64,000 bases of DNA from Antedon mediterranea (taxonomy: Eukaryota > Echinodermata > Crinoidea > Comatulida > Antedonidae): assembly GCF_964355755.1 (NCBI RefSeq), contig NC_092677.1, forward strand, positions 23,408,101-23,472,100, in the 5' to 3' direction. The notes below the pieces were generated by a model. The model saw only the letters and a program-made list of their open reading frames with translations. It was not told the origin of the DNA and did not search any database. Position numbers and translations under genes: made by a program. Shown here in pieces: positions 6,001 to 64,000 of the stretch. Position 1 is the stretch's first letter. Each line of letters opens with the position of its first letter.

Positions 6001-7323
6001 TAAAAATAAACAATTATCTAATGCTGCTAATTGGTTTTTTGTTATCAATAAATAACAATTAAAACCATGAAATGCGTAAACATTGTTTCTGTATTAAAAG
6101 CTATAGCTCTTTGTTTAGCACAGGGCCTATTGTTAATTCGAACTTTGACCCTTCATTTTGTCAATGTTATCTTTTTAAAGCATTAAATCACTTAATTTCT
6201 ATTTATCTTATTTGCCAATTTTTTGTTGTTGTACCATTTTTTTTGTCAAGGTTCTGTTACACTGTTTTTATTTATGTACCAAAAAATGATACCTGAAATT
6301 CATGCCTTCTGCTTTATATTAGCTTTAAAACGCTGCATGTTTAATTTTTTTTAATAGAGATTCTATACAGCATGTTGGTAGTAAACGACTGAATGAGGAT
6401 TCTATGGACACAAAAATGGTCACTTCCTTCTTTAACTGCAAAGTTCAAAATGTTTCAAGATATTCAAAGTTGGAAAGAAAGTTTGACACAATTTACTCCG
6501 AAGATTGCAATAAGATAAAAAAAAGGATTGCCAATGTTGTCCAGTTCCGTGATGAAGAAGATGTAAAAATCGCAAGAATTAAATACTTTTTAGATGCCGA
6601 TGGTAAAAATGTGGCTGTTGCGCGTGTGGCAACCATAACGTGTGAGAATGTTTATAAAGAAGGAAACAATGCGCTTTGGGTAAAAGCCAACATATGCGAA
6701 GACACTGGAAATTATGCAAAACGCATACAATTTGAAAGGTAAAATCAATTTTATCAAATCCATACAATAATGTGAACTCATTGAGCAAATTTAAACATAA
6801 TATTACTAGTTAGATAAATAGCAATTCATTGTTCTTGCAGTAAATAAATTATTGTGTTTAAGTGAATGCATATGTACATTTAAGTACACCGAAAGCAAAC
6901 ATGAATTGTACAATTTTCATTCGATTTAATCTATAAACAGAAAGGAAAAAAATGTCAATATTTTCCATGTTTTTTTAGCACAATATAAAGATGTTTAAAT
7001 ATCCACATTCTTTACACTACTGTAATGTGCTTAAGCAAATTTAAACTTAATTACAAGTTAGATGAATAGAAATTCATTGTTTTTGCAGTAAATAAATTAT
7101 TGTACAATTTCCATTTGGTTTGATCAATAAACAGTTGAATAACAAAAAAATTGTTAATATTTTAACACAAAATAACGATTTTTTTTTTTTTTTTTTTTCA
7201 TTTTTTAGTATTGAACTTCACATTATAAGAGTTGAAAATATCCTGAAGAAGGTTGTGTATATGGAAACTGATTTAGATGGAGGCATAGCTATTCCTATTG
7301 CTTGTAGGTGGGAACACGACTGA
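1..7323 (+). CDS. Transposase-like protein, CACTA/Tnp2-type group (5' partial)
   Basis: Nine exons join in one open frame: 1-93, 210-322, 3209-3465, 3573-3834, 4055-4252, 4448-4608, 5001-5107, 6358-6738 and 7209-7323 (stop TGA 7321-7323), giving 561 residues with the start outside the window. Every junction is GT-AG and phase-consistent. Recognisable blocks in order are DGVSVSKSS, INELPPK, LFGLWSGDSKPQM, FNGKHGCGMCE (a possible zinc-binding CxxC), VVDYLHGVCSGLMK, AEFRAFLIYYG, LYGKENCTINLHN and GPLWAFGCFAFE. This order is what I know from animal 'transposase domain-containing' proteins related to plant Tnp2/DUF4218 CACTA transposases; the family name is recalled, not searched. The catalytic triad was not assigned. 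No frameshift or stop interrupts the frame, so it is either a young transposase or a domesticated gene. Its last exon overlaps the last exon of the BEN gene on the other strand. Confidence is high that it codes, moderate for the superfamily. Confidence 0.83.
323..3208 (+). other. Intron of the transposase-like gene
   Basis: This 2.9-kb intron has donor GGTAAG after 322 and acceptor AG at 3207-3208. A 1.15-kb inverted-repeat element fills 1285-2431. The rest is AT-rich with scattered GGCCTA words. No coding exon was seen in it; a 97-codon open stretch on the minus strand at 631-924 has no recognisable content. Confidence 0.7.
1285..2431. mobile_element. Non-autonomous inverted-repeat element, copy 1
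   Basis: The left end CTATAGGTAGGGATACCGA (1285 onward) is inverted at the right end as TCGTTATCCCTACTATAG (2414-2431), about 18 bp with small differences. Inside is a second inverted pair: TTTTTGTAGTTGAGCCTC near 1622-1639 and a complementary GGCTCAACTACAAAAA near 1858-1873. A related sequence occurs at about 10448-11459 inside the hAT-type element of the BEN gene; both share GGCTAAAAACGATCATTTTC and the TGATGTCATCG region. No coding capacity was seen. The superfamily is unknown. Confidence 0.6.
4609..6373. repeat. Tandem intragenic duplication around exon 7
   Basis: The stretch 4609-5443, which holds exon 7 (5001-5107) and a copy of the exon 8 acceptor, is followed by a second diverged copy at about 5441-6373. 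Shared blocks are CAGATTTATTTTT next to GCACTGATGAAGGGCTAG, ATTATTATTTGTTACTACCT, ATGCTGCTAATTGG and AGCACAGGGCCTATTG. The second copy lacks exon 7 and its flanks but keeps the functional exon 8. The first copy has only a stub of exon 8 (about 5424-5438), fused to sequence like the start of intron 6. Confidence 0.75.
5495..5880. repeat. Long inverted repeat inside transposase intron
   Basis: The arms at about 5495-5640 and 5727-5880 are inverted copies. GTATCTCCATTGAGATCCAG and CAGTAATTTGCCTTTGG in the left arm match CAATGGAGATAC and CAAAGACAAATTACTG in the right arm. Both carry the block GGGCTAGTGTTGCCCGA followed by AGCTCTGCTAA. A transcript could fold into a hairpin of about 150 bp. It looks like one repeat inserted head-to-head with another copy. 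Confidence 0.7.
6782..7140. repeat. Short direct duplication in the last transposase intron
   Basis: The block GAGCAAATTTAAAC ... CATTGTTCTTGCAGTAAATAAATTATTG near 6783-6856 recurs at about 7033-7103 with small changes. Both copies contain TTGCAG, a possible decoy acceptor. The true acceptor used for the last exon is the AG at 7207-7208 after a long T tract. Confidence 0.5.
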
Positions 7324-10300
7324 TCTCTGTGATGGTTGCTGTTGTTCAGTCAGCGGTGTCCTATAAAATGATTGCTGTGGTTGGTTCGCATTGTTAGACC
7401 TTTGATGGTTTTCGGCAGCATGATTGTTATATTGCCACGAAGGTTCTTCCCGAGGCTGCTGTTGTTCCAAACTAGTGAAATGAAGATGAAGAAGTCAAAA
7501 TGTCATATCAAATCAAAAGGTTCTTTTCAGAACCACAAAATTACAGAAAGAGATTTGAATTTGCAATTTTTATCCACGTATGGCTTAAAATAAAACACAA
7601 CCACATATTGTTCTTCCATTGAAAACCCTAGATTCACTATATTCCATCTACAGAACTAATTTAAAATATCGATATACCTTAGTGATTTTTGTCTAATCCT
7701 AACCATTTCTTGCCTTTTCTTGGAAATGACTTCACGGATGCTTGTCCTCGGTGTGTTTGGAAAAAGCTTTCTGGTAAAATCTATGCCAAATAAATCAAAA
7801 TGTGTTAATTGCATTCAAAAACTGCACAATGTCATAACAAAACCCCATAGTAAGTGTGCGGAACAGTTTGCATTTCAAAGTGATTCTTAATAAAAAACAC
7901 ACATTTTTCACAAAAAAATATTAGAGATGGGAAATGCATTCAAATTAATTCTGATAACATTTTTAAACAGTGTAAAATTTGTCTCCCCTGTATAACACAG
8001 TTTAAATTACCTGTAATAGCACCCAGTCGGATTGGGTCTAAAACTTGGCGCTGGAGGCCATCTCGATTCTTGGTGGCAGAGAAAGAGCAACGATACATCT
8101 CATCTGAATCGAAAAAATGGTTCACTAAAATTCTTGTGCACTTCGAAAAAGTTGAGCTTGATCTGCATTCAGATTGAATGTGTTCCGGAATTTTCTGCAA
8201 AATTAAAATATGGTTGTCAGTTAATAAGTTATTCCACCTTCTTAAAACAAAATTACCACAATGACAGTAATTTTTAAATACTGAATAGAATTGTATGGCT
8301 TACAAATCAACACATACTGATAATAGTTAGTGCAAAACTTACTTTTAAGAAATCATCTATCTCTTTCTGCTGTCGAGATTTCTGAGGAGGGCCTGGGGTG
8401 CGATTTTCTATCTGTAAAATAATTTCATATACTGTGCTATCTCAAATATTTTGAAATCTTTTTATTAATCATACAATCGGAATATAATACAAATCGGAGA
8501 TTTTTTTTGGTAACAAAATACTTGTTCTCATATAAAATAACAACTTTAAATTTTGGTGGCCAAAATGTCAATAGTTTGAATGAAATTACCTTGGCATGCA
8601 AACTACTTATTTGTTCCTTCATCACCTTGTTGTCCTCCACAAGAAAGTTGACCTGGGTGCAGAGTTCCTTTACGGTTCGTAAAAGTGTGCTGTGCTCATT
8701 TGTGGATACTGGTGTTGTAAATGGAGAATTTGTTGATTGCTGCAAAGGTTTGTATGGTGTTGGTCGTAATGGTGCATTTGATGATGAAGGTAAAGGTGGA
8801 GATGAAGGTAAAGGTGGAGATGGTGATCGTCCAGATGACATTGATGTTGAAGTTGATGGTGCTGGCGACAGTTCTTGTGGAGGCTCTTGTGAAGGCGAGG
8901 GTTCTTGTGAAGGTGATATTTCTCTAAAAGGTGATGGTTCTCGGGAAGGGGAAGATGCTTGTGCTTGTGGTGACTGTGATTTGGTGGCATTTGTTTGAAA
9001 CAGCTTTCCACACATTGCAAAAGCAGTGCCTGCAACATCATCTCTTCTTTCTAAAATAAACATATAAAAATGCCTGAAGAGTTTTTTTTTAAATTAATTA
9101 AAATATATTTACTCATAAAATACAATAGAGTAATAAGATCAGAACATACCTTTTCTTTGTAATGCTACTGCTGCAAACAAATAAATAAAATATATATTCA
9201 TTATAATAATATATTTGTGAATATTTTGGTGTAGAAAATACATACGACACATGACTGTAGAGGAATTGATATTGATTATATTGTTCCATAGTATATTATA
9301 TACAATTTATATAAAACTTACTCATATTTTTTGTCTTCTTTTCTTTGTTTTTGTCTGAAATTTTAGATAAATTTTGAAGTACCTTGGTTATTTTTTATTT
9401 ACAGTATTCTGTCCTACTTATTTACAAGCTTGTCTTTTTCAAGAATTCAAATATTTTAAAACATTCAAGAAAGGTTTATAAATTCATTTAGCTTGGCATA
9501 ATTAAGACAATAAAATAACATAGAAAAATACATCAAATTGCAAGTTGACTGTTCCAACTTAAACAATCTATAATTTTACATTGCATATCTAACCTCATTT
9601 TGCGTTGCATTACTTAAAAGTTTGCCATAAGAATAAAAAAAGGATATTGTAAATTACTTAAAATTAATTGATATCTTACCTTCCTTTTTCTTCGCTTTTC
9701 TCTTCTTTGATTTTTCTTCTGTGGACTCTAAAGAGTAAATTAAGAAATTGTTATCAAATGGAGGAAAACAAAATATGATTCACTTTAGCTAACCTTTCAG
9801 GGTATTTTATTTACATGTATAATGTATGTTATTCAATAATCACCAACTATCGGTGTCAGTGATCTATTAAATCATCCAGCTAAGGTGTACTGTATGTTTT
9901 GTTGTATTGTATATTTACAGTAGGTTTTATCATATTGCTAAAAGATTAAGGCTACTAATTTAAATAATAGATTTTAAACCCATTTTTAATATTCTGAGAA
10001 TGTTTTAACTTTTTTAAGATTTTATTTACTGTTTTTTGGCTGTTTCCCAATCATCAGCATTGCTAATTTAGGGCGCTTTCTCTATATAATCTATTATATA
10101 ATCACTTTCCACTCGGGAAGTGAGCCTTTCACTTCCTTTGTTCTAGCATGCATCAATAGCCTTTTATATTTTTGCAACTGTGTTCTTAATTACTAATAAC
10201 TTAATTACGTTTTAGTAAGTGGTTTTCGACTTAAAACGTAAATATTGAGTACTTTGCGTGCGGAGTGAGCAACAATGGGCTGGGGCATTTTAGCCATACA

Positions 10301-13300
10301 AAAATCTTGCTGTAAATATCCTAAAGTGGTCGCTAATGAATTGCCATGATCAGTGGCGTATCCAGTAGGGGGACGGGGGGGGGCGGCCTCCCCCCCCCCC
10401 CTGATTTCGTTTCCGTCGGCACATCATCGCGGCCGTCGGCAAACAAAGGTGCCGGGGAAAAAATTAAACTATTTATTCTGACAATAATTGAACTGTAAAC
10501 ATAATTCTTTTGAGTGTTTGTTTATTTACATATCATATCATCATTGATCCCTTCAGATCAACTATTTTTTAATTTCATTACATCTAACGAAACACGTAAA
10601 AAATGTGTAGCACGTACGTACGCGGTAGATTGTTTACTCAAAAGTCTTTGACCTTTACCCTAAAACCTTGTTTTTGCATGCAGTTGAGCCTCTCATGACC
10701 TGGGATTTGTATGTCTTCCTACGCTAAGAGATTATATAGTTCCACATGCCATGTGCTTTTTTGTCTATATTTATTATAAGTGCAAAAAACCCGGTTTTTT
10801 TTCTCGATATGAGGCCTTTATTATTCAAAATTTTTAAAGAAAAAGCACATATATCATAAAAAATATCCATGTATTTCATTTTTGGAACAGAATATTCCGT
10901 GAGGCTCAACTACAAAACCACCATTTTGTGATATGATGTCATCGTAAGCCAATCAAAGCTGAGCTTTTTCGCGATTGGCATTGCTCACGGTTGAATGATT
11001 TAAGATTCTAGCTGATTTGATTGGTGGATGCGAATCACCCGCAGCGGAATGTTTTCTCTCGCGCGTGTACCATGAATCTCTCTGATCGTTACTACACAAA
11101 GTTAGAGCAATGAATTTGTCCGAATTCCGTTAAGTAAACAACTTTATATATTTTATAAGCATTTAATAACATGTTTTATTGATATTTCCAATGGTGATAT
11201 ATAAAATAAATTACTAAAAAACGTAATTATATGTAATTATTTTAACCAAAAATGGCGTAGTTAATAGAATTGTCGACTGAGGCCGCAAATTGTTTTACTT
11301 CTTTCGTGGCTAAAAACGATCATTTTCGGCGATGTTTTAGACCCTATATTTCGAAAACTACAAATCAGATTTTCCTAATTCTTTCTTTATTGTAATATGA
11401 ATACAACATACTAACAGATAATGTTGGTTTGGTTTTAATTTTGCATCGTTATCCCCGGATATAAGACAATATGACTATATGTAATCCTTGATCAGAGACG
11501 TCGTGTATGTACACCAATTTTGTCGGCAAATTGGCAATTCCCGCCCCGCCCCCCCCCCCCCCCCCCACTTCAAAATCCTGGATACGCCACCGGCCATGAC
11601 TAAATATAACTTAAAAAATCCAAAGGATAAATTGAAAAATATACGCGACCGGCAAACGTAGTACCAAACGCACGGACAAACTGTATTCGTAAATAAAAAT
11701 AAATTTGTTAAACCAATTTAAACGTCGAGCCTTTGTAACTTTTGTTCTATATTCGCGATACTATTCGCACGACAGGCTTTATACTGGGCATTAATTAGAC
11801 TTGTAAACAACCCAACGAAAGTGACCGAAATTCGAACAAAGGGGCATCGCCAAACAAGAGTGCGTACCTAGTAAATACTGTACACGCTTTGGTGCCTGTA
11901 ACTTGATACAGCCCAGATCGACGCTTGAACCGCAAGAAAATGAGTCCGTGAGTTAAAGACGTTCACCTCCCTGTTTTACTATTGGTTAAAAGAACCATGT
12001 AGGCTGGTAATATTTTTGGACAAAATTATAAAAATCGTTTTTTTTTTTTAAATAATGATTCTTCACGACTACATTTATAGTATAAATAATAATATATAAC
12101 ATAATAAAGTGTATGTGTGATCATTTTTATCACAATTTGAGAGGAAAATGCAATAAAATTAATTTATATATTTTAAAAGTATAGAACATTATGCGAGTAT
12201 TTATATTATAATACAATATAATACATATATCAACAAAAATACGTAATTGCAATTAATTTTTCCGCGGTCGATAGCCGGCATGCATTAATCACAATCGCAA
12301 TTACTACAAAATCCTACGTTGGATCATGGAGGTATTATACCTCCATGGTTGGATGGACACAACGCAATGACATGATAATATTTGCATCGCTTAGGCCTAA
12401 CCTATCTGACGGTACATTATAATTAGGACATTCGCATTAAACGCAAAATACGATTGTTTTGCTGATTCCTATCGCGCTAAGGGAGTGTCATTTCCGGCCA
12501 ATTATATGCGTGAAATATAAACAGCAATAAATTTACCTTCATTTTTCTTGTCTTTTCTCTTCTTTGATTTTCCTCCTACAGACCCTAAAGAGTAAATTGT
12601 AAAAAATGTTTCAAATGAAGAAAATTGTTTGTATAAGTATTAATTATGTACAGTTTAGTGTGTATGAAATAATACTAGAGCAATAATTAATTATGCCATA
12701 CCTTTCGTTGTTGCAACTTCCGGGGCAACTTGTGTTTCTGTAGACCCTCAATTGTAAAAACAAGACATCGTTATTTATACTACAGTACAGACAAATATAT
12801 TTTAATATATATTAAAGTTTGATCAACCAATATAGCCAACATTTTAATTCAGCTGGTCACTCGATTGCAAATGTCAGAGTTATTTGCAATAGACCACGAT
12901 GTCAAATGGATCGATAAAACTCGCAAAGACACATAGTTTCATTTGTTATCTATGACGATCTATTGTATAAAAAATAACTCGTGTAAACTTAATAAATCAG
13001 ATTTAAACACGGAAAAATACGATTTCAATAACGTAGACATTTTTTTTACACCCTCCCCTCTCTAAAAAATTCCAGCATGACGAGCAAACAAAAAAGACTT
13101 AATCACACATCATCAGCAATTGATATTAATAATCGTAATGCTGGTGGTAATTTATATTTATAATCACAAGTTTACCATCATTTCTGTTATGTATAAAAAT
13201 GATTAATTTATTAAATATTACATACCACTGTCCAGATTCTTTTTAGTGTCTGAAAAAAACAACATAATTAAGAAAATTGAATAATAGATTTTATCATTAG

Positions 13301-15715: not shown

Positions 15716-18700
15716 CTAAATTGTTACTTTTTGATCCCAGTCCATATCTGAAATAGCTTTTTGATTTGCCAGTAACTGGGCTCTAATTTCCTCCTCCATT
15801 TCTTTCTTCATTTTGTCAATATCTTTTTAAATAAATGATTAAAAGAATATAAGAAAAGCAGTATGGTGTAATACTAAAGTTCTGTCTACACTATCAAACT
15901 AGTTTGACAAAAAAGGTGTGATGTGCCCAAATATGGTATACCCAAATATACAATGACATCATCAAGTTCATATATGGGCACATCACACTTATTTTGCCAC
16001 ACTAGTTTTATAGTGTAGATAGAGCTTAATGCGCATACTGTATAATCTTTGAAAATAGGGCATATAGTCTAGTGGTGATATGTCTGTCCACATACCAATA
16101 GAAAAAAGTCCATTTGGAATAATATTGATTTTGAATTAAATTTAAGGGGTAAATATTTTTATTCAACTCAAATATATGTATGTTAATAAACAACAAAAAT
16201 ACCTTCTTGACTCATTCCTACATTTTCTGGCATCATTCCTCCTGTTAGTGATTTCTTTAGTTTGTCATTTTCTTCACGTAATTCACGGATAAGTTTATCC
16301 ATAGGATTCTCATTGACTACAGCCTTATTCTTAATCTTCTTTGCTCTGTCAGCGTATCGCAATGTACCAAGTGTCTCATCATAGTTGATATCAGCAGGTG
16401 ACAAGGCTGCTATCATCACAGTTTTACTAAAGAAAATAGAATTTATTTAGTTTGTATATCAAAGCAAAACTTGTCAAACTCATCATTATTTTTCATAATA
16501 GTAAAAATAAAATATTTTAATTCAATTTCAATCAACTCATGCCTCTAATTGCAGGTCAATCAATCAATTAGACTTATATGGCACTGGTATTCATAAAAAT
16601 AATGTTCAAAGGCGCTTGACAAAGTTAATCAGGAAATGCAAGTGGGTTTTCAGTCGTATTTTAAAGGTGTTGCCGTTTTCTGATGTCTTTATTGGTAGTG
16701 TATTCCACAAAATGGGTGGTGCACAGGAAAATACATGATGACCATACGACTGCAGATTCCATTTAGGAACACGAAGGAGAAGTTTATCAGATGAACGCAA
16801 TGTACGAGACGTAGTGTAATGTACAAGAAGATCAGCCATATCCTAAGGTGCAAGTCCATTTAGAGTTTTGTATATTATGAGAAGCAGTTTGAATTTACTG
16901 CCAATGCAGAATGTTTGCTTGTATTGTAGATATAGAATTATGATTTTTTCAGTATATGACATTGATGAATGGATGTTCATTGAATTGTAAGCAAATTCAT
17001 GGAAAAATTTCATTTGAAAATTTTGTTTAGCAAAATTGCTAATCAAACTGATTTTTTAGTCAAGAAACATAGTTTTGTATTGTATTTTTTGCTACACAAT
17101 TGTAGAAATGTGTAGCAAAAAGGTTGTTTTGTATAGCTTTTTGCTATGCTACACTGGCGAAATTATTCCCTGAAATTAAAAGTATGTACCTGTTGCCACC
17201 AAGAGCATTCTGTAAAAGCTTAGTGAGCACTGAATCTCTGTATGGTACCATTATCTTCTTCTTACCCATTGACAAATCTGCTAAAGCCTGCAATGATAAT
17301 AATAATAATATTGATACTATAGTAAAAGTACTATATGAAATACATGAACACTCCGGGGCGGATTCAGCATTATATATTAGGGGTGGGGGTGGCTAAATAT
17401 TTCATAAATAATAAAAACGACCAGTAATGGAGCTGTAGCTTGGTGGTTAACTAGCTTGCCTTCCAATCCCTAGGTCCGGGTTCAATCCTGTTTAGCCTAA
17501 ATATGCGCCTGACACTATCTTCTATCAACTATAACCGAATTACAGTCATGTCTTGGGACCATTCTACAGTTACTACTAGATAGGCCTTCTTCATCAGTGC
17601 TTCTATGAATGTTGTGTGTTGAGTGCAGAACACTAGTTGATCATACCCAATTTTGATTTTACAATCAATCGAGAATTTACCTTGTGGCAGCCACATAATC
17701 AGCACCAATTTTTGGCTAATTTAAACTTATCTAAAACCTTTTTGTTTACAAATTGCTTATTCACTGCACAGTTATCAATGTTTGAATTGACATGCTATAA
17801 GTTATTATTAAATGAAAGATATTATCAATTAGAAATGAATTAAGGTAGCATACACTTAAGAAAAATGTATTATTTTCATATTATCATCATACCGATATAA
17901 CATTTCCAAGTGCAGATAAAGACTTGTTTATGTTGGCACCTTCTTTTAGCCTGTCACCAGTAGCTCCTGTACTATCAGCTCTTTCACTACCTGAAAATAA
18001 TCAGTTAAAAACACATAGTATTAGAGAGGAATCTGGATAGTTGATAATTAATACAGTACATAAGATACTTGTTTGAAGGTTTGCATGGCAAAATGAATTA
18101 GTTGATATACATTTTGCGGTACACAACGTATATATAGTTCTAAAAATAACTGTTGAGTTTCTCTACGTTTCGGTCAATATACTTTGGTCGTCCTCAGAAG
18201 TGAGAAATGAGGAGGATCAAAGTATATTGATGGAAACATAGAGAAACTCAACAGTTATTTTCAGAAATATTTATATGTGGTGTACCGCATACTTTATAAC
18301 AACTTAATATACTTGGTCTTTTTATGTTTTCTCTTTTCTTGTTAGACTGTCTTTTTAGTCATTTCTTGTATTTTTCCCATTGACTCTTCTTATTGTGATC
18401 CTCTGATCAATTTTGTTACTAGTTATCAATTTTGTTATTCTTAATAATTTTAGATTTTTTTTAACCTAAATAATTATTAATTTTTTATTATTTCATTATC
18501 AAAGTATTTATGTAAATATGGTCTAATCAATGTTATTTAAAATGGATCTAAGACGACCATTTAAGTTGCAGTCTTACGGCTCATCAAATCATCATATCAT
18601 CATATCATACTCAATATTCTGAATTTTTAAAAGGTTTAACAATAGTGTTCAATTATTCTTATGATGAATATATTATTACATCTACGCTTTCTCTATATTT

Positions 18701-27700: not shown

Positions 27701-30700
27701 TCAGCAGAGGAAAGGCAATGGCCAATACGTCTGAGGCAGATACTAGATGCAGGGGCTGCCATAAGAGTCAGCAGTGCTGATTTCAAATGCCTAATGGCAC
27801 CCGAGCTCTGTATACAGCACCTGATATTCCCTGATGGTTTCCCATCCAAGCTCTAACCAGGCCCAACAGTGTTTAACTTCGGGTGATCTGACGAGAACCG
27901 GTGTTTCAACGTGGTAAACCCATAATCTGTCATAAGCGTCCTTTGTGCAACAAGAACCTGTTCAGTTGTCTTCGGTGTCAACCGAAGTGCACCTCAAAAA
28001 CTGTCACAACTAATGTCTCCCAGCTATTAACAACCCTCACTGTACTTCAACAACATCAAAACCACTCATTTATGCCCGATTCATTAGACATGTAATAAAA
28101 ATATTTTCTCACTTCTGAAAAGGTTTAGGATAAGAAACTAGACAGGTTAATTAGTTTGTTTTGTAGATAGGCCCACGCATATTCAGCCATTTATTATGTA
28201 ACACACCAACAATCATCCAGTGGTGTATCGCAGAAGCATGAAGCCTTGGTTTATGAACCCTAAGTGGCCCTCCAACGCTGGAAGCCTCAGTTTTTTTAGC
28301 CTTTTTCGGCATATTTTAATGCCTGTTTTTTCTCTGGACACTGCTCAGGGCCCCTATAAGCTCCGGGGTCCCTGGGTTTAGCCAGTGAAAGCTTATAGAT
28401 GGTAGACCACCGCAATACCCTATACTATACTTTTAACCGGCATCATATTCTCATTATTCATTGCTGCTCCTACCAAAACTAATGCAAGGGCCTGTTTCTG
28501 ACTTCAAAGAGCCACTTATTTGAAGAAAAAAAAGAATAAAATCTCATTTCTGCTAAATATATACATTACCAGATATAAAACTGTTTTTGATAATTGTCTT
28601 CATTAATTTCTTTTCTTATAATTAAAATTTAGTTTGGGATATTGAATGTATTTTTGCTTATGTTTTTAATCGCATGTTTGAGAAATAGATATACAGTATA
28701 CATATTGCCATATATAAAACTGTTTACACTCATGTCTGAAGAGGATACTTAAGTTAGTACTTTCAAGTTCATATTATAAATATGAGTATTGGCTTCTCCA
28801 TGAGAAAAACACAAAGATTAAGATTTAACAGGATCTGCTTCTGCTGTCACATGTCCAAGGCTATTCTGATACCAAATATAGCACACCAATATAATGCCTA
28901 CTGTAAGCCTCAAAAGCCTTAGTTTAAGGCCTGGCCAAAAAATAAATATGTAATAATATATATATTATATTATAATATATAATCAAATATATTATAATAT
29001 ATATATATGTATAAACACAGTAGGCAAAGAACATTAATTCTAATAATATATATATATACATAGGAAAAAGTTCTTATTAAATTGCAGATCCAAATAGTTT
29101 ATCTAATTGAAAAAATAGGGTATTGTATACAACTTCCTGATGACTCACTTCAATTAAGCCCTGTGATATAACTGTGTCACTTATGTTTTATATTTCGCCT
29201 GATGAGTGTGGCCAGCTAGATGCTGGTCATACGAAACAGATTTGTAGCGATTAAAACAATGAATTAAGTAACCAAGTTTTCTGCTGTTATTTTATTTATT
29301 TATGCTCTACCTTGGTATCGAGCACTCTATCCTAACGGTCTGATACTTTCAACCTGAATATGAAGAAATTATTCCAATTTTATCCTAAAACTATAGAAAA
29401 TAAAAATTTAACCAATCCACTCAAATGACTTCATGTTCAATAAAAACAATTAAATATATACGATACAACCATCTTATTTTTATACATTTAATTCAAAACT
29501 ATTTAAAGTTTTTTTTTTGGAATTGAAAGCTAATTAAACTTTTGAAGCTTTTTCATCATTAATTAGTTTATCATTTTGCATGGAAATTTTCTACGGAAAA
29601 TATAAAAGATGAAGAGTTGCTCTCTCTTAATCTAAAAGACTAAAGATTCAGGGCATCATCTTTTCACTTGCATATTTTGTTATCTTTCTTGCTTACACAT
29701 AACTATCTACTTCAGCATACCAAACGCAGCAATTTACAGTCTCGATCCCATTAAAAATGTATATTAAATATATTGGCTGATTATTTGAGTCAAATGGAGA
29801 TGACAACAATATTATTGTGTACATTGTCAATAGTGCTTGACGCATTAGACCACTTAAACAGGTTTAGTGAGCTCTCAAGTGGTCACATGACTAGCAACCA
29901 GACATCTACCATTGTCTGTTGATATCATCTTAGTTACCTTCAACCATGTCTATTAAAAGTATTAGAATCTTCTAAAGTATATAACAACTATTACAATTTT
30001 GACAGTATAACTAGAATAGAAACATTTTCAATTTCAAAAAAAAAGATTGGGGACACACCTTATCAGATTCTTTTCATCACATGGAATAAGTTCAGTAACG
30101 ATGTGAAAACACTGGTAGGTCTGTCCATGGCAGTGATAAAATCACTGGAGTCGGGCAAAATATTGGCAAAGGGTAATGAGACTCAACCATAGTTCTGGAT
30201 GTCCAGTGTACATATCTGGCTTGTGTGCACTTTAAAGAACCGGCCGATCAACATTCGGTTAGAAGTTAATAATACATTACAGATCCTCTTTTGTCATTCA
30301 TTACATTATCTTCACTGAAAATTGCGATTCTTAAACCTTAAAACTAGCAATACACTTTTCAACACGTTTTAAAAGTAGATTTGCCTATATAATAAACTGA
30401 AAATATTTACTAACAAAAGGAAAAACTTTTCTTTTTACAACAATTGTTGTAGGAACAACCTAACTTTATATACAACCCGTTATACTCTACAATACTGACC
30501 ATGCAACTCAAACAATAATTTACCCATTTAAAAATGGAACAATCCTATGATACCATAGACATATTGACAGCCATAATTATCTTGATTAATTTATGCATAA
30601 ACCAATTGTAGCCTGTAAGGTAGCATCTATTACAATCACTTAATCACTATGGTAATAATTGATCAATTATCAATAATAAATATAGACAGTATGATTAACA

Positions 30701-46763: not shown

Positions 46764-46885
46764 TAAAGCTCTGTCTACACTATCACTAGTTTGACAAAAA
46801 CAAGTGTGATGTGCCCAAATATGGTACAACATAATTGTGTCCATATATGGTTTGTCACAAGCCTGATAGCGTAAACAGAGCTTTA
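46764..46885. mobile_element. MITE, family 1 copy B
   Basis: Starts TAAAGCTCTGTCTACACTAT, ends AAACAGAGCTTTAG, and shares GTGTGATGTGCCCAAATATG with the copy at 15876-16028. Confidence 0.75.
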
Positions 46886-46979
46886 GATGTGTGTGATGAT
46901 TAATATAGACAGTTTTGGTACCCCATGATGTATGGAGTTCGGACAAAAACTGTTGAACTTCTCTACAATATGCTTAGAT

Positions 46980-47015
46980 CATGGAGGAAAAAATATTATT
47001 ATTTTTTCCTCCATG
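46980..47015. mobile_element. 36-bp palindromic insertion, copy 2
   Basis: The insert runs CATGGAGGAAAAAATA, TTAT, TATTTTTTCCTCCATG: a perfect 16-bp stem with a 4-nt loop. CTTAGAT lies on each side (46973-46979 and 47016-47022). Confidence 0.75.
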
Positions 47016-47742
47016 CTTAGATCAAAGGAGTAAGCACTACATAATGTGTTGCACTGCAAATCTTATACTGTATATTCAATTCAATTCAGATAACAATTCA
47101 ATTCAATTCAATTTCTCCATGATCATATGTTACAAGAAAACGATAATATTTTGATACATTACCAGCTACAAGTTGTTGATGTCAAGTTAAAATATCAACT
47201 CATAATATTTTGATACATATGTCCTTCTACTAAGGTATCCAGTTGGTAATCAATGGAGGTATAAATCTTAATAATACAGTATGTGATACATCATTATTGT
47301 AGGTGCTTTCCATTTTGATATCAAGTTAACCCAAAACTGACAATATTTCATTTTGATGAATGTGACATTTATGATTATTGTTGGCAAATAGTATTCAGGA
47401 TATTCCACATGAATTTAGGCTAAACCTACATAATGTATTGGTACAACAGTAAATGAGATTGATAGTATTTTTGTTTATACAACTTGTTCTAGTTTTTACT
47501 TGCACATGTCTGTACAGTATTACAATGTAGGTCTCCTATTGATGATCATCAAGTGTTTACCACTGGACATTTCTTATTCCTATCATGACCAGTGGAAATC
47601 AAAGATATTCACTCTTAAAGTCTCAATCACACTGGAGGCGTTTTTTGAAAATTTATCCAACCCAATTAATTTGACCAACAAAGCCAATCCAAACACTGGC
47701 TACCAAAAGCATCCATCTTGAGTAAAGTTACAATGGTTAAAT

Positions 47743-47768
47743 CATGGAGGTTATACTGTACCTCCATG
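47743..47768. mobile_element. 26-bp palindromic insertion, copy 3, beside its empty site
   Basis: The insert starts CATGGAGGT and ends ACCTCCATG (9-bp stem). GTTAAAT flanks it (47736-47742 and 47769-47775). The neighbouring sequence is tandemly duplicated, and the second copy (47824-47876) has GTTAAAT once and no insert. Confidence 0.8.
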
Positions 47769-48549
47769 GTTAAATTTACTATTTTCCAGTTCAGTGCGAA
47801 CAAGGCTTAAACAAGGCTTTAGTTAAAGTTACCATGGTTAAATTTACTATTTTCAATACTAGTGCGAACAAGGCTTTAGGTACATAAATAAATACAGCAG
47901 CATGTTACAAACACTAACATCTGAATTGTACAGCATGTGTGCACATACCTACAGTGGTATAAATTTCATTCCATCATTAATTTTAGCGTGACCCTAAACT
48001 CACCTCTGATGAGGTCAATCATGTGACAATTTCACAAATCAAATCAATAGAACTATTTTATTTTTCCTGTAAAAAATTATTAAAAAATACAAATATGAAT
48101 TTTATTTTAGATTAATAGTGTACATACACTTAAACATATATTTGTTACATATATTTTCCACAAAACAGATGTTATTCATTACAACTTGCATGAGATGGAA
48201 AGATTTGGATCACGACAGTGGGTTGTATGCAGGACAAACCACAGGTCGATGACTTTTTAAGTTTGAAAATAGATTATGAATCAAACAGTTGCATAGGGCT
48301 GGTATTTATTGTATGTTAAGAGGAACCTTTTTATGGACTAATGTATTTGGTAACGTTGCCAAAAGTTGCAATAATACATTCTTTCCTTTAGTGGTTAAAG
48401 CAAAAATGTGGTTCTTTAGAAATGTTGGTACTGGGATGAAATAGATAAAGAAGATGATTGAAAATGTTCATCTGGTTTGTAGTAATAAGTTACTAGAAAT
48501 GTTCTAAATGTTCTAGGTGTCAATCTGTTTGATGATAGATCGTCATTAG

Positions 48550-57278: not shown

Positions 57279-60200
57279 CTAGACATGTAACTCGTCACTT
57301 TGACGAGTTTGGTTATCCGCCGCGCAAGTGGTGCAACATAAACATTAAGAGGATAGGTTGAGGACAAAAGGAAGTGTTCACGTTGGCATTATGACCTGAA
57401 CTGAAGAATATGATATGTTGTTATTGCTGAATTTTATTATTTAAATTCATATATAGTATACACAGTATCTGTATCCATATCACATACAGTGTAGAATAGG
57501 TGAAATTACGGGACCCGCTATTTATTGCAATTTTTAACATGTTGACGGTTTTAAAATGAAACGCGAAGGTAGCAATTCCGAAAGGAAATTATCTCAGCAA
57601 CAACGTATTAACGTGTAGAAGAAATTTGAATACGTGAAATATTGATGCGCGCTCTTTTAAATGTAATGAATTATGACGCAAAAGATGAAAATACGACCTT
57701 TTTTATTTAACTGGCCATATGATGACGTCACAACATCCGATTGGCAACATTTTTACATAATTTCGTATCTACAATCCAATAGCTTCCAGAAAAAGTTTTA
57801 ATCGTGATTATCACATTTTATTCTTACGAGCTATAACAGATTAAAATTTACTGTAAAGATGAAATTGATGCCACACGTGATTTAAATTTTTAGGCATGAC
57901 GACGTCAAAAAAATAAAAATATTTTTAACTCATGCGAAAGATAGTTGATTGACCTAGACAATATCAAAATCGGGGTGAAAATGGAAAACGGATAAGTGGA
58001 GATGCGCTCTATTCAATGTGATGAGCTATGACGAAAGATACAAAAATCCTAAATTTTATATTCGCGTGGCCATACGATGACGTCACAATGTCCGGTTAGC
58101 CATATTAATACCTGATCCGACATCTACAACTCATCTACTTCCAGAATATGTCATCCACAAAAAGTTGACCGTCTAGTTTAGAAATTACGACTGTTTAAAA
58201 AAAGGCATATTTTAAACGAATTGTTTAACCTTTTCATAAAAAACGCGCGCAAATTGTCCAATTCGACGTGCTCGTATGACGTATCTTTAAGTCGAAATTG
58301 TTTAAAATTTGGTAAAATTACTAGAAAAGGCTGGAAAAACATAAATTACGCGAAAAAAATACGTTTTCAATGCTACGTGCGCACCGCACACGTAAAAATG
58401 TGCGCACGCGTGGGAATTTTTGACATGCTTAAAACGACATGAAACGCGTAGAAAGTTGATTATAAATTAATTTTGCGCAATTTGAAATTTTAAATGCGCG
58501 TGCGCGCGTAACTTTGTGTAAAACACGCAATTTTTTTTCAACAGAAAGTTAGCGCATGATATAAATTAAACTTTTGCAAAGTTTCACTTTAAAATGTTAT
58601 TTGGTTTTCGACATATGTTAAATACGAGAAAATCGTTAAATCGCGCGTACGTCACGTTGCGCAATTGTAAACGTCATGAAAAGCTTCGCATGACGACGTT
58701 ACGTAAATGTCAAAATGTTAACATAGTTAACGAAATGTTATGTTTGCGAGTTTCAGAGAAAAGCGTTACACAAAAATCATACAGAAAGAAAGAAGAACTA
58801 GACATGAAACTCGTCACTTTGACGAGTTAGTTATCCGCACGACAAACGCCACGTGCACGTCATACGTTGGAATATTGCACACGGAAAAAGATTATGGCAT
58901 TGTGACCTGAACTGAAGAATATGATATGTTTTTAGTGCTGAATTCTGTTATTTTGTGTCATATAGTATACACAGTATAATCTGTATACATATCACATACA
59001 GTGTAGAATAGGTGAAATTACGGGACCCGCTATTTATTCAAATTTTTAACATATTGACGGTTTCAAAATGAAACGCGAATGTAGCAATTTCGGAAGGAAA
59101 TTATCTCAGCAACAACATATTAACGTGTGGAAGAAATTTGAACACGTGAAATATTGATGCACGTTCTTTTAAATGTAATGAACTATGACGCAAAAGATGA
59201 AAATACGACTTTTTTTATTTAACTGGCCATATGATGACGTCACAACATCCGATTGGCAAAATGTTTACATGATTTCGTATCTACAATCCAATAGCTTCCA
59301 GAAAACATTTTAATCGTGATTATCCCATTTTGTTCTTACGAGCGATAACAGATTAAAATTTACTGTAAAGATGAAATTAATGACCCAAGTAATTAACATT
59401 TTTAGGCATGATGACGTTACAAATATTAAAATATTTTTAGCTCATGCGAAAGGTAGTTGATTGACCTAGACAATATTAAAATCTCGGAGAAAATGGAATA
59501 CGGATAAGCGTGATGCGCTCCATTGAATGTGATGAGCAATAACGAAAGAGACAAAAATCCTATATTTTATATTTGTGTGGCCATACGATGACGTCAAAAT
59601 GTCCTGTTAGCCATATTAATGTATGATTTGATATCTACAACTCATCAACTTCCAGAATATGTAATAAAAATAACTTTCACCGTTTAGTTTAGAAACTACA
59701 ACTGTTTAAAAAAAGGCATAATTTTGACGATTTTTTTAGCTTTTTGATCAAAAACGCGCGTAAATTTTCCAATTCGACGTGCTCGTATGACGTAATTTAA
59801 AGTCACAAATGGTTTTAAAATGGTAAAATTACTCTAGAAGGCTGGAAAAACATAATTCATGAGAAAAAAAGATGTTTTTCACGGTACGTGGCCACCGCGC
59901 GCGTAAAAAAATGCGTGCACGTGGGAATTTTTGACATGCGCGAAATGTCATGAGTCGTGTAAAAAGTTGATTAAAAATTAATTTTACGCATTTTGAAACT
60001 TTAAATGCGCGTGCGCGCGTAACTTCTTGTAAAACATGCCATTTTTAATCAATAAAAAGTTTGCACTTGATATGACTTAAATTTTCACAAAGTGTCAAAA
60101 CTAAATTATGCTTGGTTTTTAGTCTATGAGCAATCATAAAAAATCATGAAATCGCGCGTAAGTCACGTTGCGCAACTCTGACGTCATTAAAAAATAGGAG

Positions 60201-63200
60201 GTGCACAACTTCACGTAAATGCCCATATGTTGACAAAGTTATGAAATGTTATGTTTACCCATTTTAGAGATACGCTCTGCACAAAAAGTGAGGGAGAAAG
60301 ACAGAAGAATAATATAAAATTGAAACAGGACGATTACAAGGAGTTATCCGCTACTAAGCGGATAACTAACTAGACATGTAACTCGTCACTTTGACGAGTT
60401 TGGTTATCCGCCGCGCAAGTGGTGCAACATTAACATTAAGGGGATAGGTTGAGGACAAAAGGAAGTGTTCACGTTGGCATTATGACCTGAACTGAAGAAT
60501 ATGATATGTTGCTGAATTTTATTATTTAAATTCATATATAGTATACACAGTATAATCTGTATCCATATCACATACAGTGACATACATAGAATAGGTGAAA
60601 TTACGGGACCCGCTATTTATTGCAATTTTTAACGTGTTGACGGTTTTAAAATGAAACGCGAAGTTAGCAATTCCGAAAGGAAATTATCTCAGCAACAACG
60701 TATTAGCATGTAGAAGAAATTTGAATACGTGAAATATTGATGCGCGCTCGTTTAAATGTAATGAATTATGACGCAAAAGATGAAAATACGACCTTTTTTA
60801 TATAACTGGCCATATGATGACGTCACAACATCCGATTGGCAACATTTTTACATAATTTCGTATCTACAATCCAATAGCTTCCAGAAAAAGTTTTAATCGT
60901 GATTATCACATTTTATTCTTACGAGCTATAACAGATTAAAATTTACTGTAAAGATGAAATTGATGCCACACGTGATATAAATTTTTAGGCATGATGACGT
61001 CAAAAAAATTAAAATATTTTTAACTCATGCGAAAGATAGTTGATTGACCTAGACAATATCAAAATCGGGGTGAAAATGGAAAACGGATAAGTGGAGATGC
61101 GCTCTATTCAATGTGATGAGCTATGACGAAAGATACAAAAATCCTAAATTTTATATTCGCGTGGCCATACGATGACGTCACAATGTCCGGTTAGCCATAT
61201 TAATACCTGATCCGACATCTACAACTCATCTACTTCCAGAATATGTCATCCACAAAAAGTTGACCGTCTAGTTTAGAAATTACCACTGTTTAAAAAAAGG
61301 CATATTTTAAACAAATTTTTTAACCTTTTCATAAAAAACGCGCGTAAATTTTCCAATTCGACGTGCTCGTATGACGTATCTTTAAGTCGAAATTGTTTAA
61401 AATTTGGTAAAATTACTAGAAAAGGCTGGAAAAACATAAATCACGCGAAAAAAATACGTTTTCAATGCTACGTGCGCACCGCACACGTAAAAATGTGCGC
61501 ACGCGTGGGAATTTTTGACATGCTTAAAACGACATGAAACGCGTAGAAAGTTGATTATAAATTAATTTTGCGCATTTTGAAATTTTAAATGCGCGTGCGC
61601 GCGTAACTTTGTGTAAAACACGCAATTTTTTTTCAACAGAAAGTTAGCGCATGATATAAATTAAACTTTTGCAAAGTTTCACTTTAAAATGTTATTTGGT
61701 TTTCGACATATGTTAAATACGAGAAAATCGTTAAATCGCGCGTACGTCACGTTGCGCAATTGTAAACATCATGAAAAGCTTCGCTTGACGACGTTACATA
61801 AATGTCAAAATGTTAACATAGTTCACAAAATGTTATGTTTGCAAGTTTTAGAGAAAAGCGTGCCACAAAAATCATACAGAAAGAAAGAAGAGAAACTAGA
61901 CATGTAACTCGTCACTTTGACGAGTTAGTTATCCGCACGACAAAGGCCACGTGCACGTCATACGTTAGAATATTGCACACAGAAAAAGATTATGGTAATA
62001 TGACCTGAACTGAAGAATATGATATGTTGTTATTGCTGAATTCTGTTATTTTGTGTCATATAGTATATACATAATCTGTATACATATTACATACAGTGTA
62101 GAATAGGTGAAATTACGGGACCCCCCGTTTATTCCTATTTTTAACATGGCGACGGTATCAAAATGAAAAACTAAGACAGCAATTTGGGAAGGAAATTATC
62201 TCAGTAACAACATATTAACGTGCTGAAGAAATTTGAATACGTGAAATATTGATGCACGCTCTTTTAAATGTAATGAATTATGACGCAAAAGATGAAAATA
62301 CGACTTTTTTTATTTAACTGGTCATATGATGACGTCACAACATCCGATTGGCAAAATGTTTACATAAATTCGTATCTACAATCCAATAGCTTCCAGAAAA
62401 CGTTTTAATCATGATTATCACGTTTTATTCTGACGAGCTATAACAGATTGAAATTTACTGTAAAGACGAAAATAAGTGACCCACGTTATTTACATTTTTA
62501 GACATGATGACGTCATAAAAATTAAAATATTTTTAACTCATGCGAAAGATAGTTGATTGACCTAGATAATATAAAAATTGGGGTAAAAATGGAAAACAGA
62601 TAATTGGAGATGCGCTCTATTAAATGTCATGCGCTATGATGAAAGATACAAAAATCCTATATTTTATATTCGCGTGGCCATACGATGACGTCACAATGTC
62701 CGGTTAGCCATATTATTACATGATCCGATATCTACACCTCATCAACTTCAAGAATATGTCATCCACAAAAAGTTGACCGTCCAGTTTAGAAATTACGACT
62801 GTTTAAAAAAAGGCATAATTTTGACAAATTTTAACGAATGTTTTACCTTTTTCATCAAAAACCCACGTAAATTATCCAATTCGACGTGCCCGTATGACGT
62901 AATTTTAAGTCTAAATCGTTTAAAAGTTGGTAAAATTACTACAAAAGGCTGGAAAAACATAAATCACGTGAAAAAAATTGTTTTCAACGCTACGTGCGCA
63001 CGGCGCGCGTAAAAAAATGCGCACGCGTGGGAATTTTTTACCTGCTCAAAATGACATGAAACGCGTAGAAAGTGGATTAGAAATTGATTTTTCGCGTTTT
63101 GAAATTTTAAACGCGCGTGCGCGCGTAACTTCGTGTAAAACATGCCATTTTTTTTACAAAGTCAGTTAGCGCAAGATATAACTAAAACTTTTGTTAAGTT

Positions 63201-64000
63201 TCAATTTAAATTGTTATATGGTTTTCGATGTATGTTAAATACGCGAAATTCGTTAAAACGCGCGTAAGTCATGTTGTGCAATTCTGACGTCATTCAGAAA
63301 TAGAAAAGCACAACTTCAGGTGAATACCCATATGTTGACAAAGTTATGAAATGTTAACTTTACACGTTTTTGAGATATGCTCTGCACAAAAATGACAGAA
63401 AGAAAGAATAATACAGACTAGACATGTAACTCGTCACTTTGACGAGTTTGGTTATCCGCCGCGCAAGTGGTGCAACATTAACATTAAGGGGATAGGTTGA
63501 GGACAAAAGGAAGTGTTCACGTTGGCATTATGACCTGAACTGAAGAATATGATATGTTTGTTATTGCTGAATTTTATTATTTAAATTCATATATAGTATA
63601 CACAGTATAATCTGTATCCATATCACATACAGTGTAGAATAGGTGAAATTACGGGACCCGCTATTTATTGCAATTTTTAACATGTTGACGGTTTTAAAAT
63701 GAAACGCGAAGGTAGCAATTTCGAAAGGAAATTATCTCAGCAACAACGTATTAGCGTGTAGAAGAAATTTGAATACGTGAAATATTGATGCGCGCTCTTT
63801 TAAATGTAATGAATTATGACGCAAAAGATGAAAATACGACCTTTTTTATTTAACTGGCCATATAATGACGTCACAACATCCGATTGGCAATATTTTTACA
63901 TAATTTCGTATCTACAATCCAATAGCTTCCAGAAAAAGTTTTAATCGTGATTATCACATTTTATTCTTTCGAGCTATAACAGATTAAAATTTACTGTAAA
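57279..64000. repeat. 1.5-kb tandem satellite with A-B higher-order structure
   Basis: Units start with CTAGACATGTAACTCGTCAC or a one-base variant at 57279 (A), 58798 (B), 60370 (A), 61896 (B) and 63418 (A, cut by the window edge), with lengths 1519, 1572, 1526 and 1522 bp. A units continue GGTTATCCGCCGCGCAAGTG; B units continue AGTTATCCGCACGAC. A matches A and B matches B over their first parts more closely than A matches B, giving a dimeric period of about 3.05-3.1 kb. Each unit opens with a 9-bp hairpin, AACTCGTCA CTT TGACGAGTT, and contains an internal diverged duplication with a period of about 355 bp. Short open frames over the units are not conserved enough to be genes. Confidence 0.9.
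57723..57730. promoter_or_regulatory. TGACGTCA palindrome, recurring in the satellite
   Basis: A perfect ATF/CREB-type octamer. Others seen in the array are at 58078-58085, 59235-59242, 59589-59596, 60818-60825, 60995-61002 and 61173-61180, at the same places in successive units. Function is unknown. Confidence 0.6.

What the first reader, a model, noticed from the sequence alone, without database searches (positions are those of the whole stretch)
46973..47022. Tiny palindromic insertions with 7-bp target duplications: a possible new class of micro-transposon
Seen directly: a 36-bp insert with CATGGAGG/CCTCCATG ends and a perfect 16-bp stem, flanked by CTTAGAT twice. The other two copies in this window, at 12325 and 47743, have the same ends but different middles (23 and 26 bp) and are flanked by GTTGGAT and GTTAAAT. 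The three flanks fit one 7-bp pattern, STTRRAT. Shared ends, fixed duplication length and a target preference are what mobile DNA leaves behind, yet these are far too short to be ordinary MITEs. Inference: hairpin mini-elements mobilised in trans, or terminal stubs left by one DNA transposon.
Basis: partly seen in the sequence, partly recalled or inferred. Interest (0 to 1): 0.88.

Follow-up and report, generated by a model that had tools for sequence, protein, structure and literature searches.

The report
P-type transposon excision scars, genome-wide
The tiny hairpins are most likely scars left where P-element-like jumping genes cut themselves out of an animal-like genome and the break was glued back together, so they are a fossil record of excision rather than a new kind of tiny transposon.

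Summary
Observation confirmed. The window's 354-Mb genome holds 1,045 CATGGAGG(N2-30)CCTCCATG palindromes, against 1 for the reversed pattern. Of the 50 places listed, 37 have an exact 7-bp duplication and none extends to 8. The target is a weak palindrome, RTTNAAY, not STTRRAT. A parent was found: a 6,324-bp element with 32-bp inverted repeats CATGGAGGTATAAAAATAGAAGG..., an exact 7-bp duplication and P-type transposase domains; 0.9-kb copies share its ends. Half of 50 non-redundant tiny copies are exactly two end-prefixes of that repeat joined with 0-4 nt overlap, against a mean of 2.6 for shuffled middles. Retained ends stop at 20-21 of 32 nt in the 100 rows listed. A second P-type family leaves similar scars (14 against 0), stopping at 17 nt. 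Laboratory Drosophila P excision footprints have this anatomy. Best reading: end-joining footprints of P-superfamily excision. 'Micro-transposon' is not supported; 'terminal stubs' was close. Parents of window copies 2 and 3 were not found.

The parts
12318..12324 (.). target-site duplication GTTGGAT, left copy
12325..12347 (.). copy 1, 23 bp; exactly 11 + 13 nt of the L092 inverted repeat with 1 nt overlap
12348..12354 (.). target-site duplication GTTGGAT, right copy
46973..46979 (.). target-site duplication CTTAGAT, left copy
46980..47015 (.). copy 2, 36 bp, 16-bp stem; ends CATGGAGGAAAAAATA (sister end family; parent not found)
   Evidence: similar forms L046, L047, L071
47016..47022 (.). 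target-site duplication CTTAGAT, right copy
47736..47742 (.). target-site duplication GTTAAAT, left copy
47743..47768 (.). copy 3, 26 bp; right end reads CATGGAGGTACAGTA (third end type, seen also in L055 and L058, which lack exact duplications; parent not found)
47769..47775 (.). target-site duplication GTTAAAT, right copy
47824..47876 (+). neighbouring paralogue of the copy 3 site (small tandem duplicate) with a single GTTAAAT and no insert: empty-site form, 33 bp shorter (26 + 7)

Best explanation
The palindromes are excision footprints of P-superfamily cut-and-paste transposons. A P-type element inserted and duplicated 7 bp of target (shown: duplications on full-length, 0.9-kb and tiny copies). 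Its transposase then cut the element out with a long staggered cut inside the inverted repeats, leaving about 20 nt of each repeat as a 3' tail on the donor site (inferred from where retained ends stop). Host end joining paired short microhomologies between the two tails, trimmed or filled the rest, and sealed the gap; because both tails carry the same repeat, the scar is a palindrome flanked by two target copies (inferred; such products are known from Drosophila P excision). Window copy 1 is such a join of the family whose 6.3-kb element was found. Copies 2 and 3 are read as scars of sister families with the same first 8 nt.
For: 1,045 copies against 1 control. 37 of 50 with exact 7-bp duplications, 4 more at 6/7; 0 of 50 extend to 8 bp. 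Parent element in L092: GATACCG twice, 32-bp identical inverted repeats beginning CATGGAGGTATAAAAATAGAAGG, domains PF21787 (85.6 bits) and PF21789 (25.6 bits, cut-off 24), PDB match to P transposase 6p5a (E 6.3e-5). Six loci with 878-891-bp copies and 7/7 duplications: L102-L106 and L111. The two-prefix model explains 25 of 50 non-redundant copies; shuffled middles give mean 2.6, maximum 8 in 1,000 runs; 29 of 50 with five related repeats, shuffled mean 3.7, maximum 8 in 300 runs. Of 100 listed rows (81 places) that retain at least 18 nt, 17 read further into the repeat: 1 to nt 19, 12 to nt 20, 4 to nt 21, none to 22 (counted by eye). Prediction on a second P-type family (L088: 794-aa frame with PF21787 and PF21788; 6p5a E 1.5e-14): 14 tiny palindromes against 0 control, 7 of 14 exact 7-bp duplications, retention at most 17 of 32 nt. 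Drosophila P scars with both duplications: length 7-44, median 30; stems 2-18 (from a table of PMC2895639 read); the window's are 23, 26, 36 and 11, 9, 16.
Against: The parents of the A-type ends (copy 2) and TACAGT-type ends (copy 3) were not found, so those two rest on analogy; the two other TACAGT-type copies in the sample have flanks of 2/7 and 3/7 only. 13 of 50 copies lack an exact duplication and 9 have 4/7 or fewer. Only 5 of 14 copies of the second family are exact two-prefix joins, and 3 of these 5 share one flank. Scars far outnumber the long copies found: the first 26 nt of the repeat occur 6 times exactly, two of them the ends of L092 itself, and the first 300 bp find 17 matches; such a skew needs much excision or later loss. 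Identical 34-bp and 30-bp forms recur at unrelated sites, which microhomology-guided joining can produce but tiny mobile elements would produce too. The cut offset is inferred, not measured. Some copies are passengers in larger repeats, so 1,045 overcounts independent events.
Confidence: 0.88

Rival explanations
1. Hairpin micro-transposons: 18-45-bp elements themselves moved in trans by the P-type transposase.
For: Exact 7-bp duplications; an identical 34-bp form at independent sites (L134, L137, L140, L142 and L073 exact; L138, L139 at 6/7) and an identical 30-bp form at five sites (L145-L149, four exact). An insert-free paralogue lies beside copy 3.
Against: 38 different palindromes in 50 non-redundant copies, half of them exact joins of the parent's ends; a sharp limit of retained end length in the rows listed. 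P-element ends carry internal transposase binding sites beyond the repeat (PMC7776569, figure-legend passage), which tiny copies lack. The 38-bp form, the most frequent in the list, is a passenger: all 16 fetched (15 identical, 1 with a substitution) share one flanking sequence apart from small differences.
Confidence: 0.05
2. Internal-deletion derivatives (incomplete gap repair or slippage inside palindromic elements) rather than end joining at the transposase cut.
For: Also leaves both ends and the duplication; internally deleted P-like copies are known in zebrafish (PMC7776569 passage), and 0.9-kb copies exist here.
Against: Deletion should also leave copies retaining 22-32 nt of an end; 0 of the 100 listed rows do and 0 of 14 exceed 17 in the second family. 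Limit: these patterns find copies up to 56 and 50 bp only, so longer stubs were not surveyed, and 74 further rows were not listed.
Confidence: 0.06
3. Chance palindromes or a hairpin-generating replication error without a transposon.
For: Short AT-rich hairpins are expected in such DNA (inference).
Against: 1,045 against 1 control; fixed 7-bp duplications; 26 like-ended palindromes from 25 viral and prokaryotic loci, picked for NTTNNAT on one side and partly redundant, reach at most 4/7 flank identity.
Confidence: 0.005

Closest known systems
Drosophila P-element excision footprints (end-joining products with 17-nt 3' tails)
   Same: Target duplication on both sides, ends beginning CATG, up to 17 nt of each inverted repeat, microhomology joins or short AT-rich inserts; 7-44 bp long in the rows compared
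   Different: Those were recovered in a laboratory assay in rad51-mutant flies; target duplication 8 bp. Here they lie by the hundred in a genome assembly, with 7-bp duplications, and retention in the main family stops at 20-21 nt
Galileo (P superfamily, Drosophila)
   Same: 7-bp duplications of a palindromic consensus (GTANTAC there, weak RTTNAAY here)
   Different: Galileo's inverted repeats reach 1.2 kb, here 32 bp; no tiny-palindrome set is mentioned in the passages that I read
P-MITEs of Anopheles gambiae
   Same: Non-autonomous P-type elements with the ends of a master copy, like the 0.9-kb copies here
   Different: About 0.2 to 2.5 kb by their names, 8-bp duplications; the tiny palindromes here have no shared internal sequence
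Zebrafish THAP9 / P-like element
   Same: P-type transposase with short inverted repeats and internally deleted copies
   Different: 13-bp ends, 8-bp duplication

Membership tests
P superfamily (parent element in L092) | transposase with P-type RNase H-like catalytic domain | tested here: met
   PF21787 85.6 bits (cut-off 24.6), PF21789 25.6 bits (cut-off 24); 6p5a by sequence, E 6.3e-5
P superfamily (parent element in L092) | GTP-binding insertion domain | tested here: inconclusive
   not found in the four open frames of L092 scanned, splicing not resolved; found in L088 (PF21788 65.7 bits)
P superfamily (parent element in L092) | about 31-bp inverted repeats and 7-8-bp target duplication | tested here: met
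   32 bp identical, GATACCG twice
P superfamily (parent element in L092) | 11-12-bp subterminal inverted repeats | tested here: inconclusive
   an exact 12-bp pair at 216-227 / 237-248 from the ends, E 0.12, among several chance-like matches
P superfamily (parent element in L092) | THAP DNA-binding domain | tested here: inconclusive
   not found in the open frames scanned; a sub-threshold zf-AD match instead (25.3 bits, cut-off 28); further exons not resolved; none in the L088 frame either
P-type excision footprint | both target duplications kept around the scar | tested here: met
   37 of 50 exact, 4 at 6/7; 7 of 14 exact, 3 at 6/7 in the second family
P-type excision footprint | scar made of the terminal nucleotides of a known element, cut off at a fixed distance | tested here: met
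   for the L092 and L088 families, from part of the copies; not shown for window copies 2 and 3
P-type excision footprint | produced by excision and end joining | not testable with these tools
   needs an excision assay
MITE | shared internal sequence amplified by transposition | tested here: not met
   38 distinct palindromes in 50 copies; the recurrent 38-bp form is a passenger; the recurrent 34-bp and 30-bp forms at independent sites are the exception that leaves this open for a minority

The most novel reading that the evidence does not exclude
Some of the commonest scars (the 34-bp and 30-bp forms seen at several independent sites with exact duplications) are themselves recaptured and moved by the P-type transposase, which would make them the smallest transposable units known to me in animals.
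Probability: 0.05. Interest if true: 0.85.

Novelty: new variant of a known kind. Interest (0 to 1): 0.57.

Why it matters
If right, this genome carries an archive of many natural transposase breaks and of how they were repaired in the germ line, a thing that the papers seen here read from laboratory crosses. It would let the cut offset of a transposase be read from scars (about 20 nt in one family, 17 in another), show the microhomology preferences of an unstudied animal's end joining, and suggest that a P-type family can leave far more scars than surviving copies. It also warns annotators: short palindromes with target duplications can be scars, not elements.

Tried and rejected
Rejected: micro-transposon as main reading, MITE, chance (see rivals). 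STTRRAT as target motif: 5 of 37, three of them the window's own. Prokaryotic and viral collections: 25 loci, 26 palindromes, none with more than 4/7 flank identity; used only as a null. Of seven P-type loci fetched at 10 kb out of 35 matches, four (L089, L090, L091, L117) gave no CATGGAGG ends, L093 gave only a right end, CATGGAGGTATAAAAAAGAAGGAG, L088 proved another family and L092 the parent. Among the end-matching loci, L107 has two ends without matching flanks, L101, L113 and L115 show one end, L108 and L112 none at the threshold used. Host species not determined: kinesin and protein kinase exons in the window say animal-like (the kinase match in Pfam is just under its cut-off). Literature: the 8-mer search found 1,943 papers, the 20 listed unrelated by title; no paper held two of six terms for tiny MITEs and footprints, none four of five terms for P-like elements in molluscs and cnidarians; the last footprint search listed 13 papers, none on genome-wide P scars by title and abstract start. 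Never answered: the STTRRAT genome count, the pattern CATGGAGGN{6,14}GAAGGAGA, and the A-type end count.

Full report
Observation. Apart from an AT-only stretch inside a simple repeat at 28966-29001, nothing else of this build was found in the window, and Markov controls gave none of at most 60 bp in 20 runs and none in 8 runs. Folded as DNA they form hairpins with z-scores of -4.6 to -8.8. Copy 3 sits in one unit of a small tandem duplication; the other unit lacks the insert, has one GTTAAAT, and is shorter by 33 bp = 26 + 7. The gap can be placed in more than one way there, but its length is fixed.

Genome. The window is C8:23408101-23472100 of a 354,431,138-bp assembly in 18 contigs. The pattern CATGGAGGN{2,30}CCTCCATG occurs 1,045 times; the reversed control pattern once. 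I read the flanks of all 50 distinct places listed, all on C1: 37 have exact 7-bp repeats, 4 have 6/7, 9 have 4/7 or fewer; in none does the exact repeat reach 8. Three of the 50 are co-duplicated with others and were dropped; by eye L026 and L033, and L032 and L035, which I kept, also belong to shared repeats. With the three window copies, 37 unique duplications give a weak palindromic target, RTTNAAY; position 2 is T in 82% of the symmetrised set. STTRRAT fits 5 of 37, three of them the window's own. As a null, 26 palindromes with the same ends in 25 viral or prokaryotic loci, picked for NTTNNAT on one side, never exceed 4/7.

The parent. PF21787, the RNase H-like domain of P-element transposase, has 35 matches in the genome and none in the tool's 14 control genomes. 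I fetched 10 kb around seven of these 35. One, L092, holds a 6,324-bp element at locus positions 1157-7480: GATACCG on both sides and 32 identical bases at both ends, CATGGAGGTATAAAAATAGAAGGAGAGAGCTC. Its frames carry PF21787 and PF21789, and the longest matches the P transposase structure 6p5a. Its first 300 bp have 17 matches in the genome, its own two ends included. Among these, six loci (L102, L103, L104, L105, L106, L111) hold 878-891-bp copies with exact 7-bp duplications; L109 (1,035 bp) and L110 (936 bp) have 6/7; others show one end or none. So one family comes in three sizes: 6.3 kb, about 0.9 kb and tiny.

What the tiny ones are made of. I asked whether each tiny copy is a prefix of the inverted repeat joined to another prefix in reverse. 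Of 50 non-redundant copies (47 genomic plus 3 from the window), 25 are, with 0-4 nt of overlap; with shuffled middles the mean is 2.6 and the maximum 8 in 1,000 runs. Adding four closely related repeats read here raises it to 29 of 50, shuffled mean 3.7, maximum 8 in 300 runs. Window copy 1 is 11 + 13 nt with 1 nt overlap. Of the 21 left over, nine have A after the first eight bases on at least one side (as window copy 2) and three have TACAGT (as window copy 3), so they look like scars of sister families; the other nine mostly carry a few extra or changed bases. Of the seven copies with A on both sides, six have exact duplications; of the three TACAGT copies only the window's has. The exact-match search for copies keeping at least 18 nt gave 89 forward and 85 reverse matches against 0. 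In the 100 rows listed (81 places), counted by eye, 17 go on to read the repeat: 1 to nt 19, 12 to nt 20, 4 to nt 21, none to 22, although the repeat runs to 32. In the commonest of these the left end is fixed at nt 20 while the right partner varies, as expected for a tail of fixed length. The pattern finds copies of at most 56 bp, so longer stubs were not surveyed.

Recurrent forms. Identical forms could mean moving micro-elements, so I read their flanks (35 places). The 38-bp form (15 identical, 1 with a substitution) has the same flanking sequence in all 16, apart from small differences: it rides in a larger repeat. Five of eleven 34-bp copies ride in a second repeat (GTCAAAC/GTTTGAC), six stand at unrelated sites (four exact duplications, two 6/7). 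A 30-bp form stands at five unrelated sites (four exact), another 34-bp form at three (two exact). In Drosophila one P scar form made up 14 of the 66 isolates that I could read, so recurrence by preferred microhomology is ordinary, but it is the evidence that leaves the micro-element reading alive.

A prediction. If scars are general to P-type transposase, another family here should leave them with its own ends. L088 (one of three copies with equal score and a 794-aa frame) has 32-bp repeats CTGAGACAACAATCAAAGAGATTGG..., duplication CGGACAC, and matches 6p5a at 1.5e-14. CTGAGACAACN{0,30}GTTGTCTCAG occurs 14 times against 0. Seven of 14 have exact 7-bp duplications (five independent; three share one flank), three 6/7, four 4/7 or fewer; retention is at most 17 nt; 5 of 14 are exact two-prefix joins, three of them the copies with one flank. 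By eye four more (L156, L159, L162, L166) lie in one common flank.

Mechanism and what is known. P transposase cuts 17 nt inside its 31-bp repeats, an unusually long stagger, and makes 8-bp duplications (PMC7776569, passages). End-joining products of P excision keep both duplications in most cases read, up to 17 nt of each end (CATGATGAAATAACATA), and microhomology joins or AT-rich inserts (PMC2895639 and PMC5466332, passages with tables). From the rows with both full duplications (44 of 66 isolates read) length is 7-44, median 30, stem 2-18; the window copies, 23, 26 and 36 bp with stems 11, 9 and 16, fall inside. Galileo, of the same superfamily, makes 7-bp duplications of GTANTAC (PMC4168063 and PMC2775673, passages). 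Anopheles P-MITEs: PMC1562414, passages. Shown here: the scars, duplications, parent, and retention limits in the rows seen. Inferred: staggered cut, end joining, and that copies 2 and 3 have such parents.

Verdict. Ordinary in kind (P-type excision scars are known from the bench), unusual in scale and in being readable genome-wide, with a family-specific cut offset that can be tested. The skew of scars over surviving long copies is real in these searches, but the number of independent events is below 1,045 because of passengers. My literature searches covered open-licence papers only, so I do not claim that such a survey is absent from print.

Noticed in passing
L092:1392-3205 (+): The P-type element carries a second gene region on the strand opposite to its transposase: a PHD-finger frame (PF00628, 28.5 bits) followed by a 350-aa frame without Pfam match; the transposase frame begins with a sub-threshold zf-AD-like match, not THAP.
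   Followed up: partly
L088:2500-8050, also C3:37950354 and C8:6208861: A second P-type family with three copies of equal score and a 794-aa open frame, which suggests recent activity; a 337-aa frame without Pfam match lies on the opposite strand.
   Followed up: partly
window 57300-63440: Direct repeats with a period of about 1.5 kb (CACTTTG/ACGAGTT borders recur), probably a tandem array.
   Followed up: no
window 1292-2425: 1,134-bp stretch with TAGGGATA inverted ends and 7-bp direct repeats CTATAGG; may be another element or chance.
   Followed up: no
window 46764-46826, 15875-15938, 15969-16027: A dispersed repeat of about 60 bp (85-92% identical) near copy 2.
   Followed up: no
L118-L133: A 38-bp scar amplified inside a larger repeat with near-identical flanks at 16 fetched places on C1-C6: a passenger scar that could help to date that repeat's spread.
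   Followed up: partly
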